A DNA stretch of 64,000 nt, from NCBI RefSeq assembly GCF_000620465.1, contig NZ_KK211140.1, forward strand, positions 248,001 to 312,000, read 5' to 3'. Shown piece after piece: positions 21,662 through 25,317 of this stretch (positions are counted from its first letter, which is position 1; every line of letters starts with the position of its first letter). The translations under genes were made by a program, and so were the position numbers. The notes below the pieces were generated by a model that made no database searches, was not told where the DNA came from, and worked only from the letters and a program-made list of their open reading frames with translations. Origin of the DNA: Ralstonia sp. UNC404CL21Col (GTDB lineage Bacteria; Pseudomonadota; Gammaproteobacteria; Burkholderiales; Burkholderiaceae).

Positions 21662-22603
21662 TCAAAGCTCGTACGCTTCGTGATCGCCGGACATGAGTTG
21701 TTCGACCAGCTTGCGCGTGAGCGTCGGCGCAAACAGTTCGATGAAGGTGTAGACGAAGCCGCGCAGGTACGCCCCTTGTTTGACGCCCAGGTGCGTGACG
21801 TTGGTGCCGAACAGGTGTCCGGCCGGAATGGCGCGCAGGTTGCGGTCGCGCTCGGCATCGAACGCGACACCGGCCACGATGCCCACGCCCAGGCCCACTT
21901 CCACGTACGTCTTGATGACGTCGGCGTCGATGGCTTCGAGCACGATGTCGGGCTTGATCTGGCGCAGCTCGAACGCGTGGTCGATCTTGGGCCGGCCTGC
22001 AAAGTGGTGGTCGTACGTGATGATCGGGTAACCCTTCAGGTCGTCCAGCGTCAGGTGCTGGCGCGACAGAAGCGGGTGGTCAGGCGGCGTCACCACCACA
22101 TGCTGCCACTGGTAGCCCGGGATCGAGATCAGATCCTTCACGTGCGACATGCCTTCGGTGGCGATGGCGATGTCGGCCTGGTCGTGCAGCACCATCTCGG
22201 CGATCTGCGCGGGCGTGCCCTGCTGAATGGAAAGGCGGACCTTGGGATATTTGCGCGTGAATTCGGCGATGGCCTTGGGCAGCGCGTAGCGCGCCTGCGT
22301 GTGCGTGGTCGCGATGGTGAAGTTGCCCTGGTCCTGTGCGGCGTAGTCCTTGCCGACGCGCTTGAGGGTTTCGACTTCTTCGAGCACGCGCTCGACGGAG
22401 GCGAGGATGCGCCGTCCCGGCTCTGTGAGACCCCGGATGCGCTTGCCGTGCCGGGTGAAGATATCGACGCCCAGCTCCTCTTCCAGCTCGATGATGGCCT
22501 TAGAGACACCAGGTTGTGATGTATAGAGCGCTTTTGCGGCCTCTGTCAGGTTGAATTTCTGCCGCACGGCTTCGCGCACGAAGCGGAATTGGTGGAGGTT
22601 CAT
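21662..22603 (-). CDS. cysB: LysR-type regulator CysB
   Basis: A 313-residue LysR regulator of the CysB/Cbl branch, the activator of sulfate assimilation that responds to N-acetylserine. The opening MNLHQFRFVREAVRQKFNLT and the helix-turn-helix TEAAKALYTSQPGVSKAIIELEEELG are near-identical to known CysB proteins, and the effector domain contains TTHTQARYALP. The start at 22603 has GGTGGAGG just before it. It faces the cys operon, the expected target, across a 153-base intergenic region. Confidence 0.95.
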   Translation of the reverse strand: MNLHQFRFVREAVRQKFNLTEAAKALYTSQPGVSKAIIELEEELGVDIFTRHGKRIRGLTEPGRRILASVERVLEEVETLKRVGKDYAAQDQGNFTIATTHTQARYALPKAIAEFTRKYPKVRLSIQQGTPAQIAEMVLHDQADIAIATEGMSHVKDLISIPGYQWQHVVVTPPDHPLLSRQHLTLDDLKGYPIITYDHHFAGRPKIDHAFELRQIKPDIVLEAIDADVIKTYVEVGLGVGIVAGVAFDAERDRNLRAIPAGHLFGTNVTHLGVKQGAYLRGFVYTFIELFAPTLTRKLVEQLMSGDHEAYEL

Positions 22604-22668
22604 GGCTGCGCGGTCAATAAGAAGAACGGGTGCGAACTGAACGCTACTTATAACCGACGCCATATAAA

Positions 22669-22690
22669 CAAACAATTTTTTATTGGTTTG
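22669..22690. promoter_or_regulatory. AT-rich inverted repeat between cysB and the cys operon, candidate CysB site
   Basis: CAAACAA (22669-22675) and TTGGTTTG (22683-22690) form a near-perfect inverted repeat around a T-rich centre, in the most AT-rich stretch between the divergent genes. It ends on the -35 box of the candidate cys promoter, the usual position of an activating LysR site. Confidence 0.4.
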
Positions 22691-22715
22691 GGATATGAGG
22701 CCAGTTCATTACGAT
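22688..22715 (+). promoter_or_regulatory. Candidate promoter of the TSUP-cys operon
   Basis: TTGGGA (22688-22693), 16-base spacer, TACGAT (22710-22715). The boxes are weak, as is common for activator-dependent promoters. The start point would be near 22722, 35 bases before the TSUP ATG. Confidence 0.4.
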
Positions 22716-22756
22716 GCTCGAACTTCGTGATAACACGCCCTCACTGTCCCTGCGCC

Positions 22757-23530
22757 ATGACGCTTGCCTATACGATTTCCGGTCTGCTGGTTGGCCTTCT
22801 GGTCGGCCTGACGGGCGTTGGCGGCGGCTCGCTGATGACTCCGCTGCTGACGCTAATGTTCGGCTTTTCGCCGGCGACCGCCGTGGGCACGGACCTGGCA
22901 TTCGCCTCGCTGACCAAGGGCGTCGGCACGATCGCGCACCGCAGCCACGGCCATATCCGCTGGGACATCGTCAAGCGCCTCTGCCTGGGCAGCCTGCCCG
23001 CGGCGCTGGTGACGGTGATCGTGCTGAAGAGCGCCGGCAATCTCGATGCTGAATGGATGCACGTGATTCGCCTGACGATCGGCGTGTCGGTCATCCTGAC
23101 GGTAATTTCGCTGCTGTTCCGCCAGCGCGTGCTGGGCTGGCTGGCCCGCAATCCGCGCTATCGCCTGCAGGGCACCACGCTCGCCGTGGCGACGATTCTC
23201 GTTGGCGCGGTGCTGGGCGTGCTGGTGACGGTGTCGTCCATCGGTGCCGGTGCGGTGGGCGCGACGCTCATCCTGATCCTGTATCCCGAGTTGAAGAGCG
23301 CCGAAGTGGCCGGCACCGACATCGCCTATGCCGTGCCGCTGACGGCCGTGGCGGGCCTGGGTCACATGTACCTGGGCACCATCGACTGGAACCTCCTGGT
23401 GTCGCTGCTGGTCGGCTCCATCCCGGGTATCTGGCTGGGCGCGCGCCTGTCCAAGAATCTGCCGGAACGTCTGGTGCGCGGCGCGCTTGCCGCCACGCTG
23501 ACGATCACGGCCATCAAGCTGGTGTCGTGA
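22757..23530 (+). CDS. TSUP (TauE/SafE) family membrane permease
   Basis: A 257-residue TSUP transporter with about eight membrane segments. The two family repeats are visible as GLLVGLLVGLTGVGGGSLMTP near the start and LVTVSSIGAGAVGATLILI around residue 160. TSUP proteins move sulfite, sulfate, thiosulfate or organosulfonates. As first gene of the cys operon under CysB it is probably a sulfur-anion transporter, but direction and substrate are inferred. Its TGA stop shares a base with the ATG of a cysteine-rich leader ORF. Confidence 0.85.
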   Translation: MTLAYTISGLLVGLLVGLTGVGGGSLMTPLLTLMFGFSPATAVGTDLAFASLTKGVGTIAHRSHGHIRWDIVKRLCLGSLPAALVTVIVLKSAGNLDAEWMHVIRLTIGVSVILTVISLLFRQRVLGWLARNPRYRLQGTTLAVATILVGAVLGVLVTVSSIGAGAVGATLILILYPELKSAEVAGTDIAYAVPLTAVAGLGHMYLGTIDWNLLVSLLVGSIPGIWLGARLSKNLPERLVRGALAATLTITAIKLVS

Positions 23531-23577
23531 TGCGTGAATTCATGCCGGCGCCGCTTGATTGCCGCTGTTGTCGCTGA
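23530..23577 (+). CDS. Putative cysteine-rich leader peptide upstream of cysI
   Basis: A 15-codon ORF encoding MREFMPAPLDCRCCR. Its ATG overlaps the TSUP stop codon (TGATG), so ribosomes can re-initiate on it. Codons 11, 13 and 14 are cysteine (TGC, TGT, TGT) and lie within the left arm of a strong hairpin at 23563-23590. The ORF ends 78 bases before cysI. Short ORFs with clustered cysteine codons ahead of sulfur genes act as cysteine-responsive attenuators in mycobacteria; the same logic here is inference. The hairpin has no T tract, so control would be translational or through Rho. Confidence 0.5.
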   Translation: MREFMPAPLDCRCCR

Positions 23578-23590
23578 GACGACAGCAGCG
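23563..23590 (+). promoter_or_regulatory. Hairpin overlapping the cysteine codons of the leader ORF
   Basis: CGCTGTTGTCG (23563-23573) pairs with CGACAGCAGCG (23580-23590) over 11 bp, one of them G-U, around a CTGAGA loop. The left arm includes the cysteine codons and the loop covers the ORF stop codon, so a stalled or terminating ribosome would change its folding. No T tract follows. Confidence 0.55.
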
Positions 23591-23655
23591 CCATAACGAA
23601 ACGCATTCCCCCAATTGAATCGCATGCCGGCCCAGCCGGATTGGACTGAACAGTC

Positions 23656-25317
23656 ATGTACCAATACGACGCTTACGATCACCGCCTCGTCGCCGACCGC
23701 GTTGCGCAGTTCCGCGACCAGGTGCGCCGCCGTATCTCGGGCGAACTGACCGAAGAAGAGTTCCTGCCGCTGCGCCTCCAGAACGGCCTGTACTACCAGC
23801 GCCACGCCTATATGCTGCGCGTGGCGATTCCGTACGGCCATCTGCGCGCCAACCAGATGCGCATGCTCAGCCATATCGCGGCGGAGCACGACCGCGGCTA
23901 CGGCCACTTCAGCACGCGCCAGAACATCCAGTACAACTGGATCGAACTGGAGCAGGTGCCGGACATCCTGGCCAAGCTGGCCTCGGTCGAAATGCACGCC
24001 ATCCAGACTTCGGGCAACTGCATCCGCAACATCACGACCGACCAGTTTGCCGGCGTGGCACCGGACGAGGTGATCGACGCGCGCCCGCTGGCGGAAATCC
24101 TGCGCCAATGGTCGACGTTCATCCCCGAGTTCGCCTTCCTGCCGCGCAAGTTCAAGATTGCGGTGTCGGCCTCGCGCCAAGACCGCGCCGTGACGCAACT
24201 GCACGACATCGGCGTCTACGCCTATGAGAAAGACGGCCAGACGCTGCTGCGCATCCTGGCCGGTGGCGGCATGGGCCGTACCCCGATCCTGGGCGCGATC
24301 ATCAAGGAAGACCTGCCGTGGCAGCACATGCTGTCGTACATCGAAGCTGCCGTGCGCGTGTACAACCGCTACGGCCGTCGCGACAACAAGTACAAGGCGC
24401 GCATCAAGATTCTCGTGAAGGCCATCGGCGCTGAGGAGTTTGCGCGCCAGGTGGAAGAAGAGTGGCAGCACATCAAGGACGGCCCCTCGACCATCACGCA
24501 GGCCGAATTCGACCGCGTGGCGCAGTTCTTCGCGCCGCCCGCGTATGAAAAGCTGGCCGACACCGATGCCGGCTATGAAAAGGCGCTGCTGGAGAACAAG
24601 GCGTTCGCACGCTGGGTCAGCCGCAACGTGCATCCGCACCGCGTGCCGGGCTACGCCGCGGTCACGCTGTCGCTCAAGCCGGGTGCGGCGCTGCCCCCGG
24701 GCGATGCCACGGCCGAGCAGATGGCGCTGGTGGCGGATTGGTCGGAGCGCTTCGGCTTTGGCGAGGTGCGTGTCGCGCACGAGCAGAACCTGATCCTGCC
24801 GGACGTGAAGAAGCACGACCTGCTGGAGCTGTGGCAGCTGGCCAAGGAGCACGGCATGGCCACCGCCAACATCGGCCTGCTGACCGACATCATTGCGTGC
24901 CCGGGCGGCGATTTCTGCTCGCTGGCCAACGCCAAGTCGATCCCCATCGCGCAGGCAATCCAGGCGCGTTTCGACGATCTCGATTACGTGCACGACCTGG
25001 GCGAGCTGTCGCTCAACATCTCGGGTTGCATCAACTCGTGCGGTCACCACCACGTTGGCAACATCGGCATCCTGGGTGTCGATAAGCACGACGAAGAGTG
25101 GTACCAGGTGTCGCTGGGCGGCGCGCAGGGCAACGATTCGGCGATCGGCAAAATCATCGGGCCGTCGTTCAAGGCCGAAGAAATGCCCGACGTGATCGAG
25201 CGCATCATCGACACCTTTGTTGCCAACCGCACAGAAGACGAGCTGTTCATCGACACCTATCACCGCATCGGCATGACCCCGTTCAAGGAACGCGTCTACG
25301 CCCGTGCAGAAGCCTGA
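23656..25317 (+). CDS. cysI: Nitrite/sulfite reductase hemoprotein (assimilatory sulfite reductase)
   Basis: A 553-residue siroheme-[4Fe-4S] protein that reduces sulfite to sulfide with six electrons. The ferredoxin-like half-domains are present, including GYGHFSTRQNIQYNWIELEQ. The cluster cysteines are C415 and C421 (ACPGGDFC) and C458 and C462 (SGCINSCG). No cysJ flavoprotein gene is next to it, so the electron donor differs from the enterobacterial CysJI complex. The start codon has no good Shine-Dalgarno sequence; a GACTG-AA-CAGTC palindrome abuts the ATG. Its place between a cysteine-codon leader and cysH supports sulfite rather than nitrite as substrate. Confidence 0.92.
   Translation: MYQYDAYDHRLVADRVAQFRDQVRRRISGELTEEEFLPLRLQNGLYYQRHAYMLRVAIPYGHLRANQMRMLSHIAAEHDRGYGHFSTRQNIQYNWIELEQVPDILAKLASVEMHAIQTSGNCIRNITTDQFAGVAPDEVIDARPLAEILRQWSTFIPEFAFLPRKFKIAVSASRQDRAVTQLHDIGVYAYEKDGQTLLRILAGGGMGRTPILGAIIKEDLPWQHMLSYIEAAVRVYNRYGRRDNKYKARIKILVKAIGAEEFARQVEEEWQHIKDGPSTITQAEFDRVAQFFAPPAYEKLADTDAGYEKALLENKAFARWVSRNVHPHRVPGYAAVTLSLKPGAALPPGDATAEQMALVADWSERFGFGEVRVAHEQNLILPDVKKHDLLELWQLAKEHGMATANIGLLTDIIACPGGDFCSLANAKSIPIAQAIQARFDDLDYVHDLGELSLNISGCINSCGHHHVGNIGILGVDKHDEEWYQVSLGGAQGNDSAIGKIIGPSFKAEEMPDVIERIIDTFVANRTEDELFIDTYHRIGMTPFKERVYARAEA

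What the first reader, a model, noticed from the sequence alone, without database searches (positions are those of the whole stretch)
23530..23590. Cysteine-codon leader ORF with hairpin between TSUP and cysI
A 15-codon ORF (MREFMPAPLDCRCCR) begins on the TSUP stop codon and ends 78 bases before cysI. Three of its last five residues are cysteine, a rare amino acid, and these codons form the left arm of an 11-bp hairpin. Placed inside the sulfur assimilation operon, it fits a sensor that stalls when charged tRNA-Cys is scarce and thereby changes cysI expression. Polycysteine short ORFs with this function are known in mycobacteria. Here the hairpin has no T tract and cysI has a poor ribosome binding site, which points to translational or Rho control.
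Basis: partly seen in the sequence, partly recalled or inferred. Interest (0 to 1): 0.75.

Follow-up and report, generated by a model that had tools for sequence, protein, structure and literature searches.

The report
Cysteine-codon leader ORF before cysI
A tiny gene rich in cysteine codons, found between a transporter gene and a sulfite reductase gene in the Ralstonia genomes we could read, looks like a built-in sensor that adjusts sulfur assimilation when cysteine runs short, although how the signal is passed on is still open.

Summary
A 15-codon ORF (23530-23577, MREFMPAPLDCRCCR) starts in the TSUP stop codon, its last codons form the left arm of an 11-bp hairpin with the stop codon in the loop, and cysI starts 78 bases on. 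In the own genus (Ralstonia, by shared contig lengths), 15 of 16 genomes gave the locus; in all 15 the ORF is open from the same ATG, its insertions are multiples of three, and it ends Cys-rich plus Arg. With one rule, 13 of these 15 and 0 of 133 pre-cysI regions outside the genus score. Codons 2-10 drift (1.70 changes per site); the Cys/Arg tail (0.93) and spacer (0.44) less so. A cysteine-tRNA-sensing intercistronic attenuator is the best reading (0.65). The output is unresolved: no T tract, no conserved antiterminator, and modelled cysI start accessibility does not respond to ribosome position. A conserved C-rich, G-poor spacer fits Rho, weakly. The hairpin shows no covariation, so Cys codons and stem are not fully separated. 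The known relatives I found are actinobacterial; eight paper searches listed none in Proteobacteria.

The parts
22661..22699 (+). AT-rich stretch that resembles the stretch directly before cysI in genomes such as L050; probable promoter region of the TSUP-cysI operon
   Evidence: by eye; no sigma-70 consensus hit; inference
22757..23530 (+). TSUP / TauE family membrane protein
   Evidence: PF01925 154.4 bits
23530..23577 (+). Leader ORF MREFMPAPLDCRCCR, overlapping the TSUP stop by one base
   Evidence: open in 15 of 15 readable genus genomes
23542..23577 (+). Alternative shorter start (second ATG), start-like in 15 of 15 (14 ATG, 1 GTG)
   Evidence: kept in 0.8 to 2.5% of neutral simulations over 14 genomes
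23560..23574 (+). Cys/Arg tail codons TGC CGC TGT TGT CGC, the proposed sensor
23563..23590 (+). Hairpin 1: arms 23563-23573 and 23580-23590, stop codon in the loop
23606..23631 (+). Conserved C-rich, G-poor spacer block, candidate Rho loading region
   Evidence: 0.44 changes per site in alignment columns 82-113; its 15-nt core is in 14 of 15 genus genomes and 5 of 399 genomes of the order including the own, control 2
23627..23639 (+). Hairpin 2 CCGGC-CCA-GCCGG, no T tract after it
   Evidence: a stem of 4 to 6 pairs is predicted in all 15; stability not beyond shuffles (z 0.8 to -1.7)
23640..23665 (+). Local hairpin over the cysI start codon
   Evidence: predicted in 12 of 15 (one shortened) with a ribosome at the leader stop
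23656..25317 (+). cysI-like sulfite/nitrite reductase, first gene of cysI-DUF934-cysH-cysD-cysN-cobA

Best explanation
An intercistronic, ribosome-mediated attenuator that senses charged tRNA-Cys. Ribosomes that finish TSUP restart at the overlapping ATG (or at the second ATG) and translate the short ORF. With enough cysteine they pass the Cys codons and leave, and hairpin 1 forms. When charged tRNA-Cys is scarce they stall on the Cys codons, which are the left arm of hairpin 1, so the hairpin stays open and cysI and the genes behind it are expressed more. Shown here: the ORF and its conservation in the genus, the Cys tail, a hairpin with the stop codon at its loop, the conserved spacer, the place in the operon. 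Inferred: translation, stalling, the direction of the effect. Guess for the output: hairpin 1 acts as a pause or barrier that lets Rho act on the C-rich spacer before cysI; given the sensor I put that step at about 0.4.
For: 15 of 15 readable genomes keep the ORF from the same start; insertions in the ORF are 3, 3, 12 and 21 nt, while the spacer has one-base indels. 2 to 4 of the last five residues are Cys in 14 of 15, at shifting positions. In 14 genomes codons 2-10 change 13, 17 and 18 times at positions 1, 2, 3 (no peptide constraint), codons 11-15 change 5, 0 and 9 times. Neutral simulation at the cysI four-fold rate: all 14 ORFs intact with at least 2 Cys in 0 of 2000 runs in each of three settings. 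Keeping the start is rare in neutral runs: TG of the first start 1.4 to 4.2%, the second start 0.8 to 2.5%. The stop codon lies in the hairpin loop in 10 of 15 folds and overlaps it in the other 5; hairpin z at or below -2.4 in 13 of 15. The operon makes sulfide for cysteine. In the own genome 12 testable upstream regions of PALP, sulfate-binding and cysS-type hits lack such an ORF, so it is not a general feature.
Against: The tail also forms the hairpin arm, and stem changes show no covariation (118 of 120 cells paired, permuted mean 117.4, 1988 of 5000 reach it), so stem constraint could keep TGC/TGT triplets; the 5/0/9 pattern is also what wobble tolerance would give. At lower local rates retention is not unusual: joint about 1% at half and 10 to 14% at a quarter of the four-fold rate; the Cys criterion alone is met in 2 to 3%, 27 to 30% and 69 to 73% at full, half and quarter rate. 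Codons 2-10 staying free of stops is expected in 69 to 80% of neutral runs, so openness there says little. G001 has lost a Cys codon to Arg and the stem pair with it; G004 has 1 Cys in the last five. Hairpin not stable beyond shuffles in G004 (z -1.0) and G005 (z -1.3). No T tract, no conserved 2:3 pairing (z 0.6 to -1.9), cysI start accessibility unaffected by ribosome position. Seen in one genus only. No translation data.
Confidence: 0.65

Rival explanations
1. A structural intercistronic hairpin (mRNA 3' end protection, processing or pausing between TSUP and cysI) is the conserved object; the Cys-rich ORF is a by-product of a GCTGCTGTCG stem lying in one of three frames.
For: Stem stable beyond shuffles in 13 of 15; no covariation that separates the two.
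Against: Start codons, frame and stop are kept in 15 of 15 and indels before the stem are multiples of three; G004 has a different stem and still carries Cys codons; G012 has four Cys codons with the weakest stem; opposite the first base of codon 14 the right arm reads A in 8 and G in 4 of 12 genomes while the left base is T in 11 of 12.
Confidence: 0.22
2. The same sensor with a translational output of the mycobacterial type: a stalled ribosome frees the cysI start from an inhibitory structure. (A variant of the best explanation, so its odds overlap with it.)
For: Weak cysI ribosome binding site; local hairpin over the start; pairing of the Asp-Cys codons with ACAGTC before the cysI ATG in the free folds of G007 and G014.
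Against: Modelled start accessibility changes by at most about 0.14, in both directions, in the 15 genomes.
Confidence: 0.25
3. The conserved spacer is a protein binding site or an internal cysI promoter and the ORF plays little part.
For: Spacer is the least changed non-coding part of the gap (0.44 changes per site).
Against: No sigma-70 consensus (other promoter types not covered); ORF conservation unexplained.
Confidence: 0.08
4. A Cys-rich functional micropeptide (metal or redox binding).
For: Clustered Cys and Arg.
Against: Cys positions are not fixed and codons 2-10 drift.
Confidence: 0.04

Closest known systems
Polycysteine leaderless short ORFs of mycobacteria (Canestrari et al. 2020, PMC8764745; not held; seen only through passages in PMC9031893, PMC9094748 and PMC13236596; its mechanism is otherwise recalled)
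   Same: Short ORF with clustered Cys codons before sulfur genes
   Different: Here inside an operon, with its start in a transporter stop codon; Cys codons lie in a hairpin arm with the stop at the loop; no modelled release of the downstream start
Cys leader peptides before cys/cbs operons of Actinobacteria (Seliverstov et al. 2005, PMC1262725; passages)
   Same: Runs of Cys codons near the stop, no terminator; Rho proposed, with the authors calling that prediction rather weak
   Different: Different phylum and operon; in Mycobacterium no conserved terminator-like hairpin, while a non-terminator hairpin is present here
trp-type transcription attenuator (recalled)
   Same: Regulatory codons in the first arm and stop codon between the arms of the first hairpin
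   Different: No T tract, no conserved antiterminator, intercistronic place
tnaC-type Rho-controlled leader (recalled)
   Same: Short ORF followed by an untranslated C-rich stretch
   Different: Signal would be uncharged tRNA-Cys, not a ligand-induced arrest

Membership tests
Ribosome-mediated amino-acid attenuator (general) | Short ORF with clustered codons of the amino acid made by the operon | tested here: met
Ribosome-mediated amino-acid attenuator (general) | Regulatory codons overlap an RNA structure | tested here: met
   stop codon inside the loop in 10 and overlapping it in 5 of 15 folds; stability beyond shuffles in 13 of 15; no covariation
Ribosome-mediated amino-acid attenuator (general) | Expression responds to starvation through the codons | not testable with these tools
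   needs reporters or profiling
trp-type transcription attenuator | Intrinsic terminator with T tract before the structural gene | tested here: not met
   0 found in 22400-23800 of the window; the other genomes were not scanned
trp-type transcription attenuator | Conserved alternative 2:3 pairing | tested here: not met
   z between 0.6 and -1.9 in 15 genomes; such a pairing appears in the stall model of some genomes only
Mycobacterial polycysteine leaderless short ORF | Contiguous Cys codons near the stop | tested here: met
   CCCC in 4 of 15 (G009, G003, G011, G012), mixed with Arg or Gly in the others
Mycobacterial polycysteine leaderless short ORF | Leaderless, at the mRNA 5' end | tested here: inconclusive
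   start lies in the TSUP stop codon in 15 of 15, which speaks against; no start-site data
Mycobacterial polycysteine leaderless short ORF | Stalled ribosome frees the downstream ribosome binding site (feature recalled) | tested here: inconclusive
   folding model shows no shift; a model only
Rho-dependent leader | Conserved C-rich, G-poor unstructured RNA after the ORF | tested here: inconclusive
   top 1.5 to 2.5% of 30-40-nt windows, top 2.6 to 4.0% at 60 nt, top 11 to 16% at 78 nt
Rfam families | Match to a curated model | tested here: not met
   6 hits at E 1.3 to 9.7, all far below gathering scores

The most novel reading that the evidence does not exclude
A cysteine-tRNA-sensing attenuator that arose inside an operon on the Ralstonia branch, between a TSUP transporter and cysI, using stop-codon-coupled reinitiation and a Rho or pause output: a first cysteine attenuator in Proteobacteria, and one that splits regulation of a transporter from that of the reductase in the same mRNA.
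Probability: 0.4. Interest if true: 0.7.

Novelty: new variant of a known kind. Interest (0 to 1): 0.55.

Why it matters
Cysteine biosynthesis in Proteobacteria is usually explained by CysB and acetylserine (general knowledge, recalled). A tRNA-Cys sensor placed inside the operon would add a second, end-product layer that acts on the reductase but not on the transporter, and would suggest that Cys-codon attenuators arose independently of those in Actinobacteria. It gives a small, genus-wide set of natural variants for testing how leader codons and hairpins evolve together.

Tried and rejected
Search for the same ORF elsewhere in the own genome: 77 sites with the CCR-stop pattern (reversed-pattern control 35); 30 of the 77 were read. 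Of these 30, 6 lie in an ORF of at most 40 codons (L174, L175, L178, L181, L183, L197); all 6 fall inside longer open frames and none looked like a leader. The other 47 sites were not looked at. Regions before 13 hits for PALP, sulfate-binding and cysS families: a first script picked the wrong frame for several loci; redone on the hit's own frame, 12 of 13 could be tested (L220 runs off) and none has an ORF with at least 3 Cys in its last five. Repeat element: the 126-nt region occurs once in full; best partial hit E 0.0035 over 30 bases, not followed. Rfam: nothing. Spacer motif in the order: 5 of 399 genomes, one of them the own, control 2 of 399; the four others were taken as chance and their surroundings not looked at. 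Alternative pairing of the right arm and release of the cysI start were modelled and not supported.

A looser Cys rule within 500 nt gave 8 hits in 117 regions outside the genus (L082, L086, L103, L114, L117, L140, L142, L150), at scattered places and without a common sequence; none was followed, and none passes the stricter rule within 300 nt.

Papers: searches listed no cysteine leader peptide in Proteobacteria; several listings were capped (20 of 51, 20 of 111, 10 of 27, 15 of 53, 12 of 66), and the library holds open-licence papers only.

Rows dropped: G013 (88% complete) gave no match. G004 was left out of the alignment, change counts and simulations, and G004, G011, G012 out of the pair permutation, where their stems pair less well in that register (6, 8 and 8 of 10).

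Full report
What is there. The ORF, hairpin and distances are as reported. The ORF starts in the stop codon of a TSUP/TauE-family gene (PF01925) and precedes a sulfite/nitrite reductase gene followed by DUF934, cysH, cysD, cysN and cobA. A CysB-family regulator lies upstream on the other strand (NF009327, 559.1 bits against a cut-off of 402). The reductase is below the cut-offs of the CysI and NirA models, so the name cysI rests on operon context and Pfam domains.

Whose it is. The species was not determined.

Conservation. A search of 16 genus genomes gave the locus in 15 (the miss is an 88% complete genome). All 15 have the ORF open from the ATG in the TSUP stop, ending in Arg and a stop (14 TGA, 1 TAA), with tails CRCCR (2 genomes), CGCCR (5), CCCCR (4), CGCRR (1), CCRCR (1), RCCCR (1) and MCCRRRRCLR (1). 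ORF insertions are 3, 3, 12 and 21 nt. By parsimony on the cysI tree, 14 genomes, codons 2-10 changed 46 times over 27 sites (48 in the codon alignment), the tail 14 over 15, the stop and right arm 26 over 18, the following spacer 14 over 32, the stretch up to the cysI start 18 over 30, and the first 27 nt of cysI 3 over 27. Several forks of that tree are weakly supported. So codons 2-10 drift in sequence while frame and starts stay, and the tail and spacer are held more tightly. This is the usual look of a leader peptide.

How strong. Under neutral change at the four-fold rate of cysI (2.34 changes per site over the tree) none of 2000 runs in each of three settings kept all ORFs intact with at least two Cys; at half that rate about 1%, at a quarter 10 to 14%. 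For the Cys criterion alone the figures are 2 to 3%, 27 to 30% and 69 to 73%. The four-fold rate comes from strongly biased codons, so it is a rough yardstick. Openness of codons 2-10 is itself expected in 69 to 80% of neutral runs; the kept starts are not. The Cys tail and the stem share bases, and the stem shows nearly only wobble-type changes and no covariation. The case for Cys as such rests on frame, starts and stop, on G004 and G012 where stem and Cys part company to some degree, and on the right arm varying more than the left opposite the first base of codon 14. G001, with a Cys lost to Arg and a broken stem pair, speaks neither way.

Spread. With one rule (at least 3 Cys in the last five residues of an ORF of 8-40 codons within 300 nt of cysI) 0 of 133 regions outside the genus score: 16 and 40 from the family, and 77 named ones, mostly other Burkholderiales, Pseudomonas, Nitrosomonas and sphingomonads. 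These are regions, not 133 different genomes: three genomes gave two regions each and L096 has the same match position as L039. I chose the 40 from the places, spread over genera; two of them (L090, L091) start inside a longer reading frame. In 14 of the 16 loci L036-L051 TSUP ends 16 to 115 bases before cysI, without the ORF; in L046 and L050 no TSUP end was found there. In some genomes of the family an AT-rich stretch that looks like window 22661-22699 stands directly before cysI (by eye). The simplest reading is that the element arose on the Ralstonia branch, inside the operon.

Mechanism. Hairpin 1 has the stop codon inside its loop in 10 of 15 folds and overlapping the loop in the other 5 (G009, G014, G015, G006, G012), the geometry of the first hairpin of trp-type attenuators (recalled). 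A ribosome held at the first Cys codon covers the left arm and frees the right arm in the model (0.34 to 0.59 unpaired in the own sequence; one genome, G010, does not follow). I then looked for what the freed arm does. There is no T tract and no terminator in the window, the best right-arm pairing downstream is not better than shuffles, and the cysI start region stays about equally paired in every state. What is left is the conserved spacer, with a C over G excess found in 1.5 to 2.5% of 30- to 40-nt windows, weaker at 78 nt. I therefore favour a Rho or pause output without strong evidence.

Elsewhere in the genome. 12 testable upstream regions of PALP, sulfate-binding and cysS-type hits in the own genome have no such ORF. 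Not every sulfur gene was looked at.

Codon note. TGT makes up 24 of the 45 tail Cys codons in 14 genomes (counted by hand) but 4 of 40 Cys codons in 11 genes of the window. Stem pairing may explain it.

Literature. Seliverstov et al. 2005 (PMC1262725, passages) report Cys leader peptides without terminators in Actinobacteria and suggest Rho, calling that prediction rather weak. PMC9031893 and PMC9094748 (passages) describe the mycobacterial polycysteine ORFs of Canestrari et al. 2020, which I could not open. PMC13236596 (passages) refers to the same work. The passages found in PMC2965389 hold no cysteine-leader or Ralstonia case. No search listing (several of them capped) showed a cysteine leader peptide in Proteobacteria.

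Verdict. Real, in all readable genomes of the genus, most likely a cysteine-sensing leader; sensor 0.65, output open. New variant of a known kind.

Noticed in passing
window 23606-23631: The spacer between the leader ORF and cysI is the least changed non-coding stretch of the gap; its 15-nt core is in 14 of 15 genus genomes and nearly absent elsewhere in the order sample.
   Followed up: partly
window 23542-23544: A second in-frame ATG is start-like in all 15 genomes (one GTG), so the real leader may be 11 codons long.
   Followed up: partly
window 23560-23574 and relatives: TGT, a rare Cys codon in the window's genes, makes up about half of the Cys codons in the leader tails.
   Followed up: partly
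L036 (before cysI): The TSUP-cysI gap of this Cupriavidus-like genome holds a GC-rich palindrome that encloses TGCTGCTG, without a start codon in the Cys frame by eye; possible precursor or chance.
   Followed up: no
window 23656-25317: The cysI product is far below the NCBIfam cut-offs for CysI and NirA although it has both sulfite/nitrite reductase Pfam domains.
   Followed up: no
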